Origin: a virus
Virus record (IMG/VR): IMGVR_UViG_3300047356_000163
Location: 1 to 32,121 of that record
DNA length: 32,121 nucleotides
Reading direction: 5' to 3' (one strand)
Shown here: positions 26,820 through 32,121 of the stretch, piece by piece
How the letters are laid out: each line of letters starts with the position of its first letter
How positions within the stretch are numbered: the first letter of the stretch is position 1
Made by a program: the position numbers and the translations under genes
The notes under the pieces: generated by a model
What the model saw: the letters and a program-made list of their open reading frames with translations, nothing else
Databases searched by the model: none
What the model was told of the DNA's origin: nothing

Positions 26820-27175
26820 TTCTCCCACTCGTCTAAAATAGATGTCAATTTTGACATGAACTGTTTAAAATTTAAAAGTGTTCCAGAACGGTAGTCGCGT
26901 CTTGCTTTTGCTACACCAGTTTCAAAAGATTCTTCTAGCGGATCAAAACCTCTGCCTTTAACAACAGCAGACCATGGAGCATACAAAGGACCCTGATAGT
27001 TCTTTGACTCATTAGTAGGTTTAGTAACCATGCCCTTCTGTCCGTCATTAACAGTAGGCATGACTTCTACAGTGCTCTTTTCTTTTTTCTTGGTTTTTTT
27101 ATTGCAGCAACTCTTCTTGCAGTCTTTGGGGCAACTACTGCCACAATCTTCACGAAGTTGTCTAAATGTTTTCAT
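26816..27175 (-). CDS. Cys-rich conserved hypothetical protein (119 aa)
   Basis: A 119-residue protein starting MKTFRQLREDCGSSCPKDC. Six cysteines lie within the first 25 residues, followed by a poly-Lys stretch (NKKTKKKEK), suggesting a metal- or nucleic-acid-binding head. The rest (YAPWSAVVKGRGFDPLEESF, then a helical end) has no known motif. The MKTFRQLRE start resembles the MKDFKKLRE start of the 85-residue protein at 27701. Its ATG overlaps the TGA of the 184-residue gene (ATGA). Confidence 0.72.
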   Translation of the reverse strand: MKTFRQLREDCGSSCPKDCKKSCCNKKTKKKEKSTVEVMPTVNDGQKGMVTKPTNESKNYQGPLYAPWSAVVKGRGFDPLEESFETGVAKARRDYRSGTLLNFKQFMSKLTSILDEWEK

Positions 27176-27726
27176 TTTTTCTTTGACATACCAATGATCT
27201 TGGAGACCTTCTTACGACGCATGTGGAGATACTTGTCAGACTTATCTACATCGCCATCATTGTCGATGTCAGCATCTGCCTTACCTACGGGGTCAAGTTT
27301 CTTTTCAGTGAGTTCATCACCTTCATATTCAACACCTGCTTTTACACAGTTGTTAACTTCTTTACCACCTTTCTTCTTGGTGCCTTGCTTCTTATATCCT
27401 TTCCAGCATGAGGTGTTGCCGTTGTCATCAACGCCATCCATCTTTACTTTCTCGATGACATAAATCTCGCCATCGATCTCATACTCTTCACGCTCAAGAA
27501 CTTCTACTTCTTCTTTCTTGACCGTTTTCTTTGCTTTCTTTGCTTTTACCGTAGTGTCTTCAATTTCAGCACCATTGGACTGCTGTGGCATACCATCAAA
27601 TGCTGCTTCGCTAATGGTAGTATTCTGGAAGGTGTCTCCACCCATCCATTTACCATATGCTTCCATCAACTCAGACGAAAACTCGTCATTATTGTTAACG
27701 CTATTGACTGTCTTCTGATACTTCAT
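27172..27726 (-). CDS. Protein with dockerin-type calcium-binding loop (184 aa)
   Basis: A 184-residue charged protein. The notable element is DIDNDGDVDKSD (153-164), a perfect EF-hand/dockerin-type loop with Asp at positions 1, 3, 5, 7, 9 and 12 and Gly at 6, followed by a helix rich in Arg/Lys (KYLHMRRKKV) at the C-terminus. The middle carries KKAKKTVKKEEVEVLEREEY and a beta-like segment (EIDGEIYVIEKVKMDGVDD). I recall this C-terminal tag in several marine phage proteins of unknown role. Calcium binding is a reasonable prediction. An exact TATAAATA late promoter lies 27 bases upstream; the leader has CCTCC rather than a ribosome site. Confidence 0.75.
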   Translation of the reverse strand: MKYQKTVNSVNNNDEFSSELMEAYGKWMGGDTFQNTTISEAAFDGMPQQSNGAEIEDTTVKAKKAKKTVKKEEVEVLEREEYEIDGEIYVIEKVKMDGVDDNGNTSCWKGYKKQGTKKKGGKEVNNCVKAGVEYEGDELTEKKLDPVGKADADIDNDGDVDKSDKYLHMRRKKVSKIIGMSKKK

Positions 27727-27958
27727 CGTTTAACAAGGAGGTTCTTCTCGTATTATTTATAGATCTAATATTCCTAATCCATTCTCTAAACATATTACCT
27801 TCTTCAGAAATTACGATAGCATAGTTTCCGCCTACTCTATGAAGATGTCCCTTCTCTCCTGTACGTGATGACATAACAGCATCACCTTCTTTAAATATTT
27901 CTTCCTGTCTCTGTTGTTGCCGTAGTGCTTCTTCTCGTAGTTTCTTGAAATCTTTCAT
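27701..27958 (-). CDS. Small KOW/SH3-like protein (85 aa)
   Basis: An 85-residue protein. A basic helix (MKDFKKLREEALRQQQRQEE) leads into GDAVMSSRTGEKGHLHRVGG and YAIVI, which has the look of a KOW/SH3-like small barrel (Gly-x-x-Gly turn between strands), a fold often used in RNA or protein contacts. The ATG overlaps the TGA of the adenylyltransferase-like gene (ATGA), so they are co-translated. A specific function is not readable. Confidence 0.68.
   Translation of the reverse strand: MKDFKKLREEALRQQQRQEEIFKEGDAVMSSRTGEKGHLHRVGGNYAIVISEEGNMFREWIRNIRSINNTRRTSLLNDEVSEDSQ
27754..27760 (-). promoter_or_regulatory. T4-type late promoter (TATAAATA), intragenic
   Basis: The minus strand reads ATCTATAAATAATACG, an exact consensus (27754-27761) within the end of the 85-residue gene, 27 bases before the start at 27726. 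Confidence 0.8.
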
Positions 27959-28518
27959 TTAAAATTCGCAGGTAGATTTTCTTGTATCTCTTCCATCATT
28001 TTCTGGCACTGTTTGTCATTCAATGCTTTGGGAATACCAGAACGAAATGTTTTAAAGTCGTTAGCAAATGCCGCACGTCTCATCTTCGTTCCAGAAATAG
28101 CAAAGGTATCTCCATCAGCATCTCTGCTACCAGAAGATTGTATCTCGATCTTTCTGAACGAGAAGTCTTTGCCATTGTATTTGTGTAAGAACTGCATCGC
28201 ACTAACACGATCAGATCCAACTAAAAATACAACTTCATTATATCCCCCCAACATTAAGTCTTGCATAATAGCAACAGGATCTTTGGGTCCTGACATTATC
28301 TTACCACGATGTTCTGGAAACATCAAGTTCATGTAATACAATTTACGATCAGGTGGTAAGGGGTTCTTACCTTTAGTATCAAACGTCTGAGAGATATAGA
28401 TCCGATAGTCATGACTACCTGCGATACGTTTCACCCCATCAAAGTTATCTTTGTGTCCTGTGGTAGGTGGTTGAAACCTACCAAATGTAAAGTAGCAAGT
28501 ATTACAATTTAACGCCAT
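27955..28518 (-). CDS. Nucleotidyltransferase of the HIGH superfamily, NMN-adenylyltransferase-like
   Basis: A 187-residue protein of the cytidylyltransferase/NMNAT type. GRFQPPTTGHKDNFD (13-27) is the HxGH-like nucleotide-binding motif in its GRFxPxTxGH form, as in archaeal NadM and NadR-like enzymes. VVFLVGSDR (96-104) and the C-terminal ISGTKMRRAA (141-150) match the second signature (ISxTxxR). Such enzymes join NMN or a similar phosphate substrate to AMP, so NAD synthesis or salvage is one reading; the substrate cannot be told from sequence. Its start overlaps the ligase-like gene's end by 10 bases, and its stop overlaps the next start. Confidence 0.82.
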   Translation of the reverse strand: MALNCNTCYFTFGRFQPPTTGHKDNFDGVKRIAGSHDYRIYISQTFDTKGKNPLPPDRKLYYMNLMFPEHRGKIMSGPKDPVAIMQDLMLGGYNEVVFLVGSDRVSAMQFLHKYNGKDFSFRKIEIQSSGSRDADGDTFAISGTKMRRAAFANDFKTFRSGIPKALNDKQCQKMMEEIQENLPANFK

Positions 28519-29714
28519 TGCTTCTGTAGGGTGAAGTTATTGTATGCAAACTCCAGGCGATTAACAAACTTAATCATGCTGCCATCTTTGTGAAGAACAT
28601 ATCCTTCAGGAGTTGTAACCTTATATCCCTTTTCAGTTTGAACGTATGTTCTAAACTCTTCCAGGTGGTCCAGTTTATCTATAACCATTTGCTTGACTGC
28701 TTGCAGTTCTTTATACAAAGTAAGCATTGCTTTGAACTTGTATACATTATCTACTACGTAGTTCTGACTACCATATACAAGTTCTCTCTTCTTAGTCAGG
28801 TTCGCAACTGTCTTGATCTTGGCAAGTTCTTTACTTGTTTTCTCTTCATAGAAGTTCAACATATCATACATCGTCTCATCGATGTTGGAGATACTACGAG
28901 CATTCTTGATCTCATTATTAAAGAACTGCTTGAGATAAGATGCGATGTGAAATTTAGCATCACCAGTAGTACCTGTCTTGGCAACTAATTCATCTAAGAA
29001 ATTGCCACAGATACCACACATGCGTTCAATCTTAGTAATATAGTTGTCGAATTTTCTTATCTCTGATTTAGAAAACCCAACCCTATCCATAGGTGTATCA
29101 TTAGGAATCACAGCACATTCAGTAATTTTATTGAATGTATTAATAGGAGCACCAGCTCTTGCCTGCATCTCAGCAAGAGAATCGCCAGTGTAGTGCGTAT
29201 GGAACACTACTCCAATCTTAGATCTCCCAACTTGTTTACCAATATCGTGGTCAGTAGGGATGCCATAAGTAATAGTGTTTGGTCGAAATGTGTATAGTCT
29301 CTCTCCATCAACCACCTCTGTATTTACGGTAGAATCTGTATACAATAAATCTCCTTGGATAACTCCTTTGATACCCAACTTACTAAAGTAGCGTAGAGAA
29401 AACTTTAGTTTCTCAGCAAGGTCTCCAGAGTAATATTCATCTACAGCACTTTCAGTAGCACATAGTTTAGGTTCAGTTTTGTTGAATACGGACTTAGTGC
29501 CGACAAAAAATACGCCAGACAAAGGATCAACACCACAGACAACAGAAGGTGCGCCGTCCCATTTGGTTTGCATGAAACCACTGCTCTCCTGCTGACCCAA
29601 CATCTTCCTCAGTTCCTTGAGAAATGATACTGCTGCCTTACATCCATCAACGCCATAGTTCAGCATCTCATCTTCCAAGTGCTCTAGGTGCTTGAGTTGT
29701 TTGACGTTTGCCAT
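28509..29714 (-). CDS. Ligase-like covalent nucleotidyltransferase (KWDG motif)
   Basis: A 401-residue protein with the order of motifs seen in ATP-dependent DNA/RNA ligases and capping enzymes. Motif I is Lys51-Trp-Asp-Gly (QTKWDGAPSVV), the predicted AMP-accepting lysine. A motif III-like site is VIQGDLLY (118-125, Asp122). A motif IV-like site is EGYVL (370-374), and a motif V-like one is IKFVNR (381-386). An unusual helical insertion of over 150 residues separates III and IV, and only about 15 residues follow motif V, so there is no OB domain. I recall related proteins of unknown function in T4-like cyanophages. Nucleic-acid end sealing or adenylylation is the leading idea. It begins 64 bases after the nuclease-like gene and overlaps the NMNAT-like gene by 10 bases. 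Confidence 0.7.
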   Translation of the reverse strand: MANVKQLKHLEHLEDEMLNYGVDGCKAAVSFLKELRKMLGQQESSGFMQTKWDGAPSVVCGVDPLSGVFFVGTKSVFNKTEPKLCATESAVDEYYSGDLAEKLKFSLRYFSKLGIKGVIQGDLLYTDSTVNTEVVDGERLYTFRPNTITYGIPTDHDIGKQVGRSKIGVVFHTHYTGDSLAEMQARAGAPINTFNKITECAVIPNDTPMDRVGFSKSEIRKFDNYITKIERMCGICGNFLDELVAKTGTTGDAKFHIASYLKQFFNNEIKNARSISNIDETMYDMLNFYEEKTSKELAKIKTVANLTKKRELVYGSQNYVVDNVYKFKAMLTLYKELQAVKQMVIDKLDHLEEFRTYVQTEKGYKVTTPEGYVLHKDGSMIKFVNRLEFAYNNFTLQKQWR

Positions 29715-29777
29715 CTATCTATGATACACGATTTTACTTGGTGGTTGAGAAGTATAGGACAGTTTGCGAAGTGTCCA

Positions 29778-31274
29778 TCAGTCCATCAGTTTTACATGAA
29801 CCGATGACTTATCTGTTTGAGATCCAGCATAAGAATATAGTGCTTTCATAATTTCATCTCCCTTACCAGAAGTTAAAATACAATCCAATAAACGAAGACC
29901 CATCAACTTACTATATCTGTAAGATTGACTTTTATTGGCAACCTCAATTTTTGCTTGCACATCTCCAGGATATCCCGCTTTTGCTGATGTACAGTATTTT
30001 TCAAGTAATTCAACCAATTCATTATTAATAGCACCCTTCTTGGATTTATTTGTTGGCTTACAATCGTTCCAAAATGTTTTATTATTCCAACCAGTTGTAA
30101 TGCCAGTGTAAGAAACGTCAAGAGATTTTAGAATTTCAACAATACTTCCGCCACCACAACGACCCTGTGCTGCTGATGATCCTTTCTTTTCTATCTGCCA
30201 AGATGGAGATGACGATCCACCAAAATTTCTTGATTGAAACCTATCTCCTTCTCCACCACCTTTTTTCCAATAAAGATAAACATCCATTGGAAAGGCATCT
30301 TCGCCACCAACGAGTTTAGGATTTTTAAATTTTACCCAGTACTGTCCCCACTTAACATCTTCAAGTTCTTTCATCTTATCATTTGGATCATAGTTCAAAA
30401 TTTTTAATTTTGCTTGATTTTTTATTTTCTTAAGAGAAACACCAATCAGTTCTCTTTCTTTATATTTTTCTTTTATGAATTCATTTATTGTATCAACCGT
30501 TTTGTAATCATCTAACTCACTTACATTGACTGTAGATGATACCATCCAGATATCCGCTGGATTCCATTTGTCTTCAGAAGAAAAAACTACCCTAATATCA
30601 GGGTCTTTCATCATACTTTTTCTAGCTCGTTGATATGCTTTTTTAATTTCTTTATCGTCTGGTCCGCCGCCTCTGCAAAAAACATAACTTTTTCCAGAAC
30701 TATGAAACGTTTCCCATAATTTATTTGCTCCCCTAATAGAAGATATCTGCCATTCTCTTGACAATTCATCTGGAAGTAATTTCTCAAAAGGAACATCAAC
30801 ATCAATCGTTTTTGATGCTTTCTCAAGATCACTTATAGAAACAGGAAGGTCTTCATCTATTGTTCCACGATACACATTGAAAGCAAGGGCAGCATAGAGG
30901 CATTGTGCTGATTCATTCCTCGCAGTTTCTGCAGCGCCACCGCCAGACCCACCACCTTGAGGTTTAATATCAATTCTTAAAATTTTACCACTAACATCAA
31001 TGTCTAATTGATTTCCAGTTCCTTTAGTATCAACAGCAGTATATCCTTTCGCGGATACATTTTGTCCAATCATAGACGCTGCTTTTGTTCTCTTTGCCCT
31101 TGGAACAATTACTTTAAGAGCAAAGAAAATTTTTGCTCTACTAGTTGGATCAGCAATTTTTGTTATATCAAATTCATAAAAAGAAAACTCTTCATTGCCA
31201 AGTGAATCCATAACGTCATAAATTGCTTTTTTATATTCACCACCGATTCCAGATAAATCTATTTGCTTAGACAT
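29778..31274 (-). CDS. Hypothetical protein with possible PD-(D/E)XK-like nuclease core (498 aa)
   Basis: A 498-residue protein. Two segments recall nuclease cores. One is QLDIDVSGKILRIDIKPQGG (89-108, Asp91...Asp102-x-Lys104) followed by a Gly-rich turn. The other is DKWNPADIWMVS (235-246) followed by LIGVSLKKIKN (276-286), an Asp-x-Trp...Ser-x-Lys pair of the kind seen in restriction-endonuclease-like folds. A Gly/Ser-rich part (about 338-378, RFQSRNFGGSSSPSWQIEKK) precedes a helical end. The assignment is from motif resemblance only. The ATG has an ideal site: GGAGG, then seven T, then ATG. That site is the 3' arm of the hairpin at 31281-31310, with a late promoter inside its 5' side. Confidence 0.6.
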   Translation of the reverse strand: MSKQIDLSGIGGEYKKAIYDVMDSLGNEEFSFYEFDITKIADPTSRAKIFFALKVIVPRAKRTKAASMIGQNVSAKGYTAVDTKGTGNQLDIDVSGKILRIDIKPQGGGSGGGAAETARNESAQCLYAALAFNVYRGTIDEDLPVSISDLEKASKTIDVDVPFEKLLPDELSREWQISSIRGANKLWETFHSSGKSYVFCRGGGPDDKEIKKAYQRARKSMMKDPDIRVVFSSEDKWNPADIWMVSSTVNVSELDDYKTVDTINEFIKEKYKERELIGVSLKKIKNQAKLKILNYDPNDKMKELEDVKWGQYWVKFKNPKLVGGEDAFPMDVYLYWKKGGGEGDRFQSRNFGGSSSPSWQIEKKGSSAAQGRCGGGSIVEILKSLDVSYTGITTGWNNKTFWNDCKPTNKSKKGAINNELVELLEKYCTSAKAGYPGDVQAKIEVANKSQSYRYSKLMGLRLLDCILTSGKGDEIMKALYSYAGSQTDKSSVHVKLMD

Positions 31275-31280
31275 AAAAAA

Positions 31281-31310
31281 ACCTCCCGTCTAACTATTTA
31301 GAGGGGAGGT
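31281..31310 (-). promoter_or_regulatory. Hairpin: terminator and/or ribosome-site sequestering element
   Basis: On the minus strand ACCTCCC (31310-31304) pairs with GGGAGGT (31287-31281). Inside it TCTAA pairs with TTAGA (loop ATAG), with one C-C mismatch between the two stems. Seven T (31281-31275) follow, which is the form of an intrinsic terminator for the gp41-mazG transcript. The same GGAGG is the ribosome site of the gene starting at 31274. The stop TAG of the 65-residue gene lies in the loop. Confidence 0.75.
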
Positions 31311-31491
31311 CGAGATAATCTTTTTCATTTTGATAGGGGTGCGTTTGTCCTGTCCATAGTCTATACCCTTCCTTGACTTCTGGCAAGAGCCACTGGTCCA
31401 CACGAACACAATGCTCCCAGTTGACAGGGTGAGCACAACTCACCACTACAACAGAAAAGAATGCTCGTAGGTGGATCCAGAGACTGAACAT
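31294..31491 (-). CDS. Small hypothetical protein after mazG (65 aa)
   Basis: A 65-residue protein: MFSLWIHLRAFFSVVVVSCA (a hydrophobic, signal- or anchor-like start), then HPVNWEHCVRVDQWLLPEV and a polar end with several Tyr. The family is unknown. Its ATG overlaps the TAA of mazG by one base (TAATG), which supports a coupled real gene. Its stop codon lies inside the hairpin loop at 31294-31297. Confidence 0.62.
   Translation of the reverse strand: MFSLWIHLRAFFSVVVVSCAHPVNWEHCVRVDQWLLPEVKEGYRLWTGQTHPYQNEKDYLDLPSK
31295..31301 (-). promoter_or_regulatory. Late promoter variant (TCTAAATA) inside hairpin
   Basis: The minus strand reads CCTCTAAATAGTTAG, 20 bases before the ATG at 31274. By T4 spacing RNA would start near 31289, after the hairpin's 5' arm, leaving GGGAGG free for ribosomes. 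Confidence 0.55.
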
Positions 31492-31895
31492 TATCTGTCG
31501 CCAGCAGCACGAACTTCCGAGTTATGAACATTGAACTCACCACCTGGATAACGCTTCTTGAGTTTGTTGACGTTAGTTTCAATTACCTCATCGAAGGATA
31601 TATCAAGTGCCATTGTAGCTTGAGCAACATACCACATAACATCACCCAACTCAATGATAAGATGCTCACGATTATCTTCGTTCCACGGTTTTCCTTGGAA
31701 GACCATTTTTTTAATGATCTCAAGGAACTCACCGCCCTCAGCATTAATTCCAACACCAGCAGTAAGAAGTCTCTCAATATTGGCACCTTGTCGATCAAGA
31801 TCCCCGATACGATCAGCAAAGTCAACAAAGTTTGTAGAAGCCTCTGAAGTAACTGCTGAAACAAATTCTTCATAGCGTTCAAATTTAATAGTCAT
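31491..31895 (-). CDS. mazG: MazG-like nucleotide pyrophosphohydrolase
   Basis: A 134-residue all-alpha NTP pyrophosphohydrolase. The metal-binding signature is complete: Glu53-x2-Glu56 (AEGGEFLEI) and, 25 residues later, Glu82-x2-Asp85 (IIELGDVMWYV). The C-terminal NVNKLKKRYPGGEF is also typical. Host MazG hydrolyses NTPs and (p)ppGpp; phage forms have been proposed to act on nucleotide pools or on ppGpp, and the true substrate cannot be read here. I take ATG 31895 as the start: it overlaps the TGA of gp41 (ATGA). A GTG at 31904 would add three residues. Confidence 0.9.
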   Translation of the reverse strand: MTIKFERYEEFVSAVTSEASTNFVDFADRIGDLDRQGANIERLLTAGVGINAEGGEFLEIIKKMVFQGKPWNEDNREHLIIELGDVMWYVAQATMALDISFDEVIETNVNKLKKRYPGGEFNVHNSEVRAAGDR

Positions 31896-32121
31896 ACATT
31901 CCACTCAGCAAATTTAGATAGTCGGTTTTGTGTTTGTGCAAATTGTGAGAACTCTTCACCAGGGTTCTCTTCATTAATGTTGATGTCAGAAGCATCTTCC
32001 GCTACATCATACAGCCTCATCTTGGATCTGTCAATTCCCACCATGAATTTTCGTGAGGCAGCGGTTTCGTTGTATCTGTTCTTAAGTTGTTTAACCATGA
32101 TGCGACCCTGTTGTTCAAGCT
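31892..32121 (-). CDS. 41: Replicative DNA helicase gp41, C-terminal fragment
   Basis: The open frame enters from the right edge; 75 residues are visible (LEQQGRIMVKQLKNRYNETA, then KFMVGIDRSKMRLYDVAEDA, ending FAEWNV). The ...VKQLKNRYN... element followed by a strand with VGIDRSKMRLYD matches the end of the RecA-like core of T4 gp41/DnaB-type helicases. An acidic tail follows. This helicase unwinds the fork and partners with gp61. Only the end is present, so the ATPase motifs cannot be checked. A Met at 32098 is internal and is not the start. It is coupled to mazG by ATGA. Confidence 0.72.
   Translation of the reverse strand, partial: LEQQGRIMVKQLKNRYNETAASRKFMVGIDRSKMRLYDVAEDASDININEENPGEEFSQFAQTQNRLSKFAEWNV

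What the first reader, a model, noticed from the sequence alone, without database searches (positions are those of the whole stretch)
31272..31310. Late promoter nested in a hairpin that is both terminator-like and ribosome-site-masking
Reading the minus strand, one 39-base element stacks five functions. They are the 65-residue gene's stop codon, a TCTAAATA late promoter, a two-part hairpin (ACCTCCC/GGGAGGT plus TCTAA/TTAGA), a seven-T tract, and the GGAGG site of the 498-residue gene. RNA arriving from gp41-mazG would carry the whole hairpin and either stop or have GGAGG paired. RNA starting at the nested late promoter (predicted near 31289) lacks the 5' arm and has a free site. In T4, genes e, soc, 49 and I-TevI are known to be silenced in early RNA by such hairpins. 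Here the hairpin also looks like a terminator, making a compact early-to-late switch. The element is seen in the sequence; the switching is inference.
Basis: partly seen in the sequence, partly recalled or inferred. Interest (0 to 1): 0.78.

Follow-up and report, generated by a model that had tools for sequence, protein, structure and literature searches.

The report
Late promoter inside a terminator hairpin
In viruses of marine cyanobacteria, the start signal for a late gene sits inside a hairpin that looks built to stop earlier transcription and hide the gene's ribosome site, so one short stretch of DNA probably ends one gene block and starts the next.

Summary
The hairpin beats all 200 shuffles of the stretch and is kept in relatives. 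The window is from a T4-like cyanophage close to ACG-2014e; the element sits where the replication operon (gp43-uvsX-gp41-mazG-65aa) meets the next gene block.

The early-to-late switch is plausible but unproven. Best reading: an intrinsic terminator with a late promoter in its apical part. Upstream RNA ends there, or has its ribosome site paired; RNA from the nested promoter lacks the 5' arm.

The same nesting recurs upstream of neck gene gp13 in related phages, with strong compensatory changes and no well-spaced ribosome site in the stem, so terminator plus promoter looks like the common core. Masking resembles T4 gene e, whose leader has the same layout without a T-tract. The element precedes 9 unrelated protein clusters, like a portable cassette.

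Against: no covariation among close relatives of this element; 36 of 79 homologues of the downstream gene keep the promoter without such a hairpin; 6 of 10 cyanophage genomes lack the gp13 element; no RNA data.

The parts
31281..31310 (-). two-part hairpin: outer stem ACCTCCC/GGGAGGT, inner stem TCTAA/TTAGA, loop ATAG
   Evidence: pairs hold in 97.8% of 325 cells over 25 close relatives
31295..31302 (-). late promoter-like TCTAAATA (-13 to -6 by T4 numbering), in the inner 5' arm and loop
   Evidence: TAAATA lies within 70 nt upstream of the start in 78 of 79 classifiable loci of the 498-aa family; C precedes TAAATA at 113 of 406 cyanophage sites
31289..31289 (-). predicted start of late RNA, in front of GGGAGG and past the 5' arms
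   Evidence: inference from the -13/-6 spacing (PMC1524935); no 5'-end data
31275..31281 (-). seven-T tract directly after the G+C part of the 3' arm
   Evidence: 6 to 8 Ts in the 8 nt after GGGAGG in 118 of 118 pattern-found instances (Ts were not part of the pattern)
31282..31287 (-). Shine-Dalgarno site GGGAGG of the 498-aa gene, in the 3' arm
   Evidence: ATG follows by 6-10 nt in 117 of 118 instances (GGGAGG itself was part of the pattern)
31294..31296 (-). stop codon TAG of the 65-aa gene, in the hairpin loop
31294..31491 (-). upstream gene, 65 aa, phrog_703, unknown function; last gene of the gp43-uvsX-gp41-mazG block
29778..31274 (-). downstream gene, 498 aa, phrog_1462, unknown function; first gene behind the element

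Best explanation
The element is a compact transcription border: an intrinsic terminator whose apical part contains a T4-type late promoter. RNA polymerase arriving from gp43-uvsX-gp41-mazG-65aa makes the whole hairpin followed by U7 and mostly stops (inferred). Any read-through RNA has GGGAGG paired and is poorly translated (inferred from folding and from T4 gene e). Late polymerase, recognising TCTAAATA, starts near 31289. Its RNA (ACGGGAGGUUUUUUUAUG...) lacks both 5' arms, so it neither terminates nor hides its ribosome site. Shown: the sequence features, the computed fold, the genomic border, conservation of the composite, compensatory changes in the sister element at gp13, and occurrence in front of unrelated genes. 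Inferred: termination, late initiation, timing, translation.
For: Fold and T7. Gene order. Nested elements in 82 loci, 39 unique, after the 65-aa gene (64), after mazG (17, one with a tRNA between) or unassigned (1). 118 pattern-found instances in front of 9 protein clusters, each with 6-8 Ts in the next 8 nt. Upstream of gp13, nested hairpin plus T-tract in 157 of 182 classifiable loci, 63 unique. Over 44 unique gp13 leaders, those without a hairpin included, 88.6% of cells pair; 51 cells changed on both sides against a shuffled mean of 18.1 (0 of 500 as high), covariation score 0.348 against 0.171 (0 of 500), and sliding the partner by 1-3 columns drops this to 8-10 cells and 0.05-0.14. Five Ts in a Shine-Dalgarno spacer are rare otherwise (7 of 601). 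The T4 gene e leader has the same nesting. Mean P(unpaired) of the Shine-Dalgarno site 0.003 (largest 0.161) in long RNA, 0.458 in RNA from the predicted start (78 and 70 unique elements). In S-PM2d the genes gp43, uvsX, gp41 and mazG rise together under phosphate starvation (passages of PMC10976474), in line with one unit.
Against: No RNA 5' or 3' ends, time course or translation data. Among 25 close relatives of this element there is no covariation signal (176 of 500 shuffles as high); part of the 5' arm is coding and the 3' arm is the ribosome site, so other constraints could hold them. 36 of 79 classifiable 498-aa-family loci have TAAATA but no such hairpin. By nested T-tract hairpins occur in 5 of 10 cyanophage genomes (none in Syn9, P-SSM4, P-SSM7, S-SM2, P-HM1; the looser scan lists one in Syn9), and only 4 of 10 have one before gp13. 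The gp13 loci were fetched with queries that have the element, so 157 of 182 is not an unbiased frequency. Computed openness in RNA from the predicted start is only partial and as low as 0.007 in one case. The stop codon in the loop means that ribosomes could open the hairpin.
Confidence: 0.65

Rival explanations
1. T4 gene e-type translational switch only: the hairpin hides GGGAGG in read-through RNA, the late RNA lacks the 5' arm, and the T-tract is just a spacer without termination.
For: T4 gene e has the same nesting without a T-tract (passages of PMC3014915). Computed Shine-Dalgarno openness changes strongly.
Against: Five Ts in a Shine-Dalgarno spacer are rare (7 of 601), yet 6-8 Ts follow GGGAGG in 118 of 118 instances. 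The gp13 element keeps hairpin and T-tract although the AGGGA of its 3' arm lies 12-18 nt before ATG in the leaders read, further than the 6-10 nt here; a weak ribosome site there is not excluded.
Confidence: 0.15
2. Overlap for economy: an ordinary terminator at the end of the mazG operon and an ordinary late promoter for the next gene, packed together without a regulatory link.
For: A terminator-like hairpin with the same arm letters occurs without a promoter: ACG-2014d, L176 1766-1781, CCTCCCC/GGGGAGG with T6. 36 of 79 homologues keep the promoter without the hairpin.
Against: At gp13 the promoter is held in the loop with compensatory changes directly on both sides of it; in 70 of 78 unique elements of this family the predicted start lies past the 5' arm and before GGGAGG.
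Confidence: 0.12
3. Translation-coupled switch: the ribosome that ends the 65-aa gene in the loop holds the hairpin open, so early expression of the 498-aa gene depends on translation of the 65-aa gene.
For: The stop codon lies in the loop here and also in promoter-then-hairpin relatives of quite different sequence (for example L124, L132, L135).
Against: The element persists after mazG, whose stop lies upstream of the 5' arm, and after a tRNA gene.
Confidence: 0.05
4. DNA-level device: the palindrome extrudes as a cruciform or single-strand hairpin that presents an already melted promoter to the late polymerase.
For: TAAATA lies in the loop of the gp13 stems. Base-pair covariation cannot tell RNA from DNA structure.
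Against: It does not explain the T-tract on one side only. Most late-promoter-like sites in these genomes have no such hairpin (26 of 367 at -8 kcal/mol or lower).
Confidence: 0.03

Closest known systems
T4 gene e (also soc, 49, I-TevI) leaders: late promoter inside a ribosome-site-masking hairpin
   Same: the T4 e leader AATACCTTCTATAAATACTTAGGAGGTATT-ATG has the late promoter between the arms and the Shine-Dalgarno site in the 3' arm; long RNA masked, late RNA free (PMC3014915 passages)
   Different: here the stem is G+C-rich and followed by T7, i.e. terminator-like; it stands at the end of an operon and precedes unrelated genes in different phages
PeSL promoter-early stem-loop cassettes of T4-like phages (Arbiol 2010, Comeau 2014; named in PMC4503421 passages; both papers not held, details recalled)
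   Same: composite of terminator stem-loop and promoter at joints where genes are exchanged
   Different: the promoter is of the late type and nested inside the stem-loop, not an early sigma70-like promoter
ordinary intrinsic terminators of cyanophages
   Same: CCTCCCC/GGGGAGG with a T-tract occurs as a plain terminator-like site in ACG-2014d
   Different: here a promoter, a stop codon and a ribosome site are inside it
T4-type late promoters of cyanophages (NATAAATA in S-PM2; PMC2984593 passages)
   Same: TAAATA core at the right distance from the gene
   Different: C at -12 (TCTAAATA), as in the Aeh1 consensus CTAAATA (PMC1524935 passages)

Membership tests
T4 gene e-type late-promoter/RBS hairpin | Shine-Dalgarno or AUG paired in RNA from upstream | tested here: met
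   computed only:
T4 gene e-type late-promoter/RBS hairpin | late promoter placed so that its RNA lacks the 5' arm | tested here: met
   by sequence and -13/-6 spacing; no 5' ends
T4 gene e-type late-promoter/RBS hairpin | read-through RNA exists early and is poorly translated | not testable with these tools
   needs RNA and ribosome data
Intrinsic terminator | stable G+C-rich stem directly followed by a U-tract on the gene's strand | tested here: met
Intrinsic terminator | RNA 3' ends at the U-tract | not testable with these tools
   no RNA data
PeSL cassette | early, sigma70-like promoter joined to the stem-loop | tested here: not met
   promoter is of TAAATA type; sigma70-like matches near it (31386-31358 and 31356-31327, 9 of 12) come from a scan of 27000-32121 with 10 found against a shuffle mean of 13.9
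PeSL cassette | stands at joints between exchangeable genes | tested here: met
   9 downstream protein clusters behind 118 instances; exchange itself not observed
T4-type late promoter | TAAATA core at -11 to -6 of an RNA start used late | tested here: inconclusive
   sequence met; start and activity not tested

The most novel reading that the evidence does not exclude
Cyanophages use a portable 'late promoter in the loop of a terminator' cassette, the late counterpart of PeSLs: it closes one transcription unit, restarts late transcription inside its own hairpin so that the new RNA cannot be stopped or masked by it, and serves as a joint behind which different late genes are exchanged. It stands at least at two conserved borders, after the mazG operon and before gp13.
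Probability: 0.5. Interest if true: 0.75.

Novelty: new variant of a known kind. Interest (0 to 1): 0.6.

Why it matters
If true, it is a very economical way to switch a gene block on late: the same bases that end upstream RNA are removed from the new RNA simply by where transcription starts. It would explain how densely packed cyanophage genomes keep units apart, give a sequence rule for predicting late-unit borders, and extend the T4 gene e principle from translation to transcription termination. It also suggests a late analogue of the cassettes reported to help T4-like phages exchange genes.

Tried and rejected
Rfam, 31100-31500: only two sub-threshold matches (PyrG leader 25.6 bits against a cut-off of 65, E 0.26; an lncRNA, E 0.29); rejected as chance. 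A first nested-hairpin listing missed several elements, among them L010, L017 and L018, because of a filter fault (L017 checked); replaced. MAFFT over 39 elements misaligned those with a shorter distance between arm and promoter, so pairs of this family were counted only on 25 of the 39; distant members with changed arms (L017, L019, L123) are therefore not in that count. An automatic listing of their arms mis-anchored L112, L123 and L098, so I read the arms instead. L079 was dropped from the counts because its 5' arm is the end of a tRNA gene; it is still among the 33 'nested+T'. A first gp13 pair count used 23 of 41 unique leaders, all with a hairpin (97.2% paired, 24 two-sided cells, 0 of 500 shuffles); since that was a selection, the count was repeated on all 44 unique 48-base leaders of L365-L467 (L399, too short, left out), six without a nested hairpin and one with a shifted register included, and the report rests on that. 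The covariance model R1, searched over seven of the eleven whole genomes, found the element in three (E 4e-12 or better); other hits were a symmetric terminator-like site in ACG-2014d (E 6e-4), reverse-strand reads of the same palindromes, and weak matches. In the scan without a T-tract demand many weaker nested hairpins appear in T4 and cyanophages; at -8 kcal/mol TAAATA is not clearly above its anagrams (26 of 367 against 96 of 1794, Fisher p 0.12), so nesting alone is not taken as evidence. Literature searches listed no paper that I recognised, from titles and abstract starts, as describing a late promoter inside a terminator in cyanophages; the Syn9 transcriptome paper and both PeSL papers are not held, and PMC3037559 (passages) predicted late promoters and terminators in cyanophage genomes in tables that I have not seen, so absence from print is not established.

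Full report
What was checked. The minus strand of the window reads ACCTCCC-C-TCTAA-ATAG-TTAGA-C-GGGAGG, then seven Ts, then ATG, from 31310 to 31272. The 65-aa ORF ends with TAG at 31296-31294, inside the loop, and the 498-aa ORF starts at 31274. The stretch folds at -20.3 kcal/mol as RNA; 200 dinucleotide shuffles average -10.6 and none is as good. With the T4 rule TATAAATA = -13 to -6 (PMC1524935, passages) the predicted RNA start is 31289.

Where it is. The region is 99.7% identical over 2401 bases to Synechococcus phage ACG-2014e and 99.0% to ACG-2014i. In ACG-2014e the genes run gp43, a small ORF, uvsX, gp41, mazG, the 65-aa gene, then the element, then the 498-aa gene (phrog_1462, no Pfam match), a DUF6267 protein, a cytidyltransferase and, further on, a head protein. 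In S-PM2d the genes gp43, uvsX, gp41 and mazG are raised together under phosphate starvation (PMC10976474, passages). So the element is at the end of a replication block. That the next genes are late is inferred from their promoters and neighbours.

Relatives of this element. Eighty IMG/VR loci of the 498-aa family and eighty of the 65-aa gene were fetched, the best 80 of each search; some contigs are in both sets. In the 498-aa set, TAAATA lies within 70 nt upstream of the start in 78 of 79 classifiable loci; 33 have it nested in a hairpin with T-tract (one of them, L079, with an arm made by a tRNA end), 8 have a terminator-like hairpin just downstream of TAAATA, 1 is nested without T-tract, 36 have no such hairpin. 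Over both sets there are 82 loci with the nested element, 39 unique, L079 left out; upstream lies the 65-aa gene in 64, mazG in 17 and neither in 1. In L017 a tRNA-Ser gene lies between. Distant members have changed but still matching arms: L017 CCTCTCC/GGAGAGG, L019 CCTCCCC/GGGGAGG, L123 TCCTCCC/GGGAGGA. Among 25 close members pairing is 97.8% but there is no covariation signal (1 cell changed on both sides; 176 of 500 shuffles as high).

The pattern fixed the arms and the promoter, not what follows. In all 118, 6 to 8 of the next 8 bases are T, and in 117 an ATG follows GGGAGG by 6-10 nt (1 at 18). The proteins behind them fall into 9 single-linkage clusters. Ten representatives match phrog_8438, 1462, 13937, 3560 or 26930, all of unknown function; three of the ten match nothing. 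In 21 of 118 a second TAAATA lies just upstream of the 5' arm. The element is thus kept while its neighbours on both sides change.

A sister element. Scanning ten cyanophage genomes and T4 for terminator-like hairpins around TAAATA showed a second nested family: ACG-2014e, S-CAM4, S-PM2 and Syn1 have one directly upstream of gp13, the neck gene, between structural genes. The other six cyanophages (S-SM2, P-HM1, Syn9, P-SSM4, P-SSM7, ACG-2014d) do not. Among 183 gp13 loci from three queries that all have the element, 157 of 182 classifiable have the nested hairpin with T-tract, 14 a hairpin just downstream, 11 none. On all 44 unique leaders of L365-L467 that could be cut, hairpin or not, the letters on both sides of TAAATA change together (CTG/CAG, TTC/GAA, TTG/CAA, ATG/CAT): 88.6% of 484 cells paired, 51 cells changed on both sides (shuffles 18.1, 0 of 500), covariation score 0.348 (shuffles 0.171, 0 of 500); with the partner slid by 1-3 columns there are 8-10 such cells and a score of at most 0.136. 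Related sequences can exceed shuffles without structure, and the structure was read from these sequences, which favours it over the slid versions; but the two-sided changes are many. In the gp13 leaders read, the T-tract is followed by 7 or more bases before ATG and the AGGGA of the 3' arm lies 12-18 bases before it, so masking is an unlikely main reason why that hairpin is kept.

Controls. In the ten cyanophage genomes 7 of 601 starts with a Shine-Dalgarno-like site have five Ts in the spacer; 3 are this element and one is a small promoter-plus-hairpin in S-PM2. TAAATA upstream of starts is nested in a hairpin of -10 kcal/mol or better with T-tract in 7 of 367 cases, against 4 of 1794 for its 14 anagrams (Fisher p 7e-4, not corrected for shared ancestry). 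Without the T-tract demand the excess is small (17 of 367 against 46 of 1794 at -10; 26 against 96 at -8). By the stricter scan nested elements occur in 5 of 10 cyanophage genomes. In T4 the same test gives 1 of 38 against 3 of 408 with T-tract.

Folding of the two RNAs. Mean probability that GGGAGG is unpaired: 0.000 in RNA from 31400, 0.53 in RNA from 31289. Over 78 unique elements it is 0.003 (largest 0.161) in long RNA, and 0.458 (smallest 0.007) in the RNA of the 70 whose predicted start lies before GGGAGG.

Comparison with the known. T4 gene e has AATACCTTCTATAAATACTTAGGAGGTATT before its ATG: the same nesting of late promoter and ribosome site, found here by the same kind of scan, and described as reducing lysozyme synthesis from early RNA 100-fold (PMC3014915, passages). 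The window element adds a G+C-rich stem and T7, the end of an operon, and changing neighbours. PeSLs (named in PMC4503421, passages; original papers not held) combine terminator and early promoter at exchange joints; the present element has a late promoter, so it is not a PeSL but resembles one in layout. CTAAATA as a late core is reported for Aeh1, and C precedes TAAATA at 113 of 406 cyanophage sites, 0 of 39 in T4.

Verdict. Observation confirmed. Mechanism: an intrinsic terminator with a late promoter in its apical part, plus ribosome-site masking in this family. Termination, late start and timing remain inferred. It is a new variant of known kinds (T4 gene e-type leaders; terminator-promoter cassettes).

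Noticed in passing
L365-L467 upstream of gp13; ACG-2014e about 102710-102745: Nested late-promoter terminator upstream of neck gene gp13 with strong compensatory changes; the best-supported example of the architecture.
   Followed up: yes
L037-L042, L081, L124-L125, L132, L135; before gp13 L430-L441, L443, L444: A second layout: TAAATA directly followed by a terminator-like hairpin, with the predicted start inside the 5' arm and often no clear ribosome site before ATG.
   Followed up: partly
pattern-found loci such as L473, L509, L520, L526: Tandem late promoters: a second TAAATA just upstream of the 5' arm in 21 of 118 instances, recalling the two late promoters reported for T4 gene e.
   Followed up: no
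S-PM2 115170-115199: ATAAATACCTCCATATGGAGGTTTTTTATTATG: tiny hairpin after a late promoter-like site with the Shine-Dalgarno site in its 3' arm, upstream of a 115-aa ORF.
   Followed up: no
ACG-2014d 93508 and Syn9 104838: Long hairpin around TAAATA (CTTCATTGAG...CTCAATGAAG, one mismatch in Syn9) upstream of a 107-aa ORF in two distant cyanophages.
   Followed up: no
Syn1 78552 and S-PM2 40757: TAAATA nested in a hairpin without T-tract upstream of an ORF of about 2750 aa in both phages.
   Followed up: no
window 31294-31296; also L124, L132, L135: The stop codon of the 65-aa gene falls in the hairpin loop in two different layouts, which may be chance or may mean ribosome coupling.
   Followed up: partly
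L009 and L016: Relatives with a tRNA-Ser gene just upstream of the 498-aa homologue keep TAAATA but not the T-tract hairpin; L016 has a short AATACCT/AGGTATT palindrome there.
   Followed up: no
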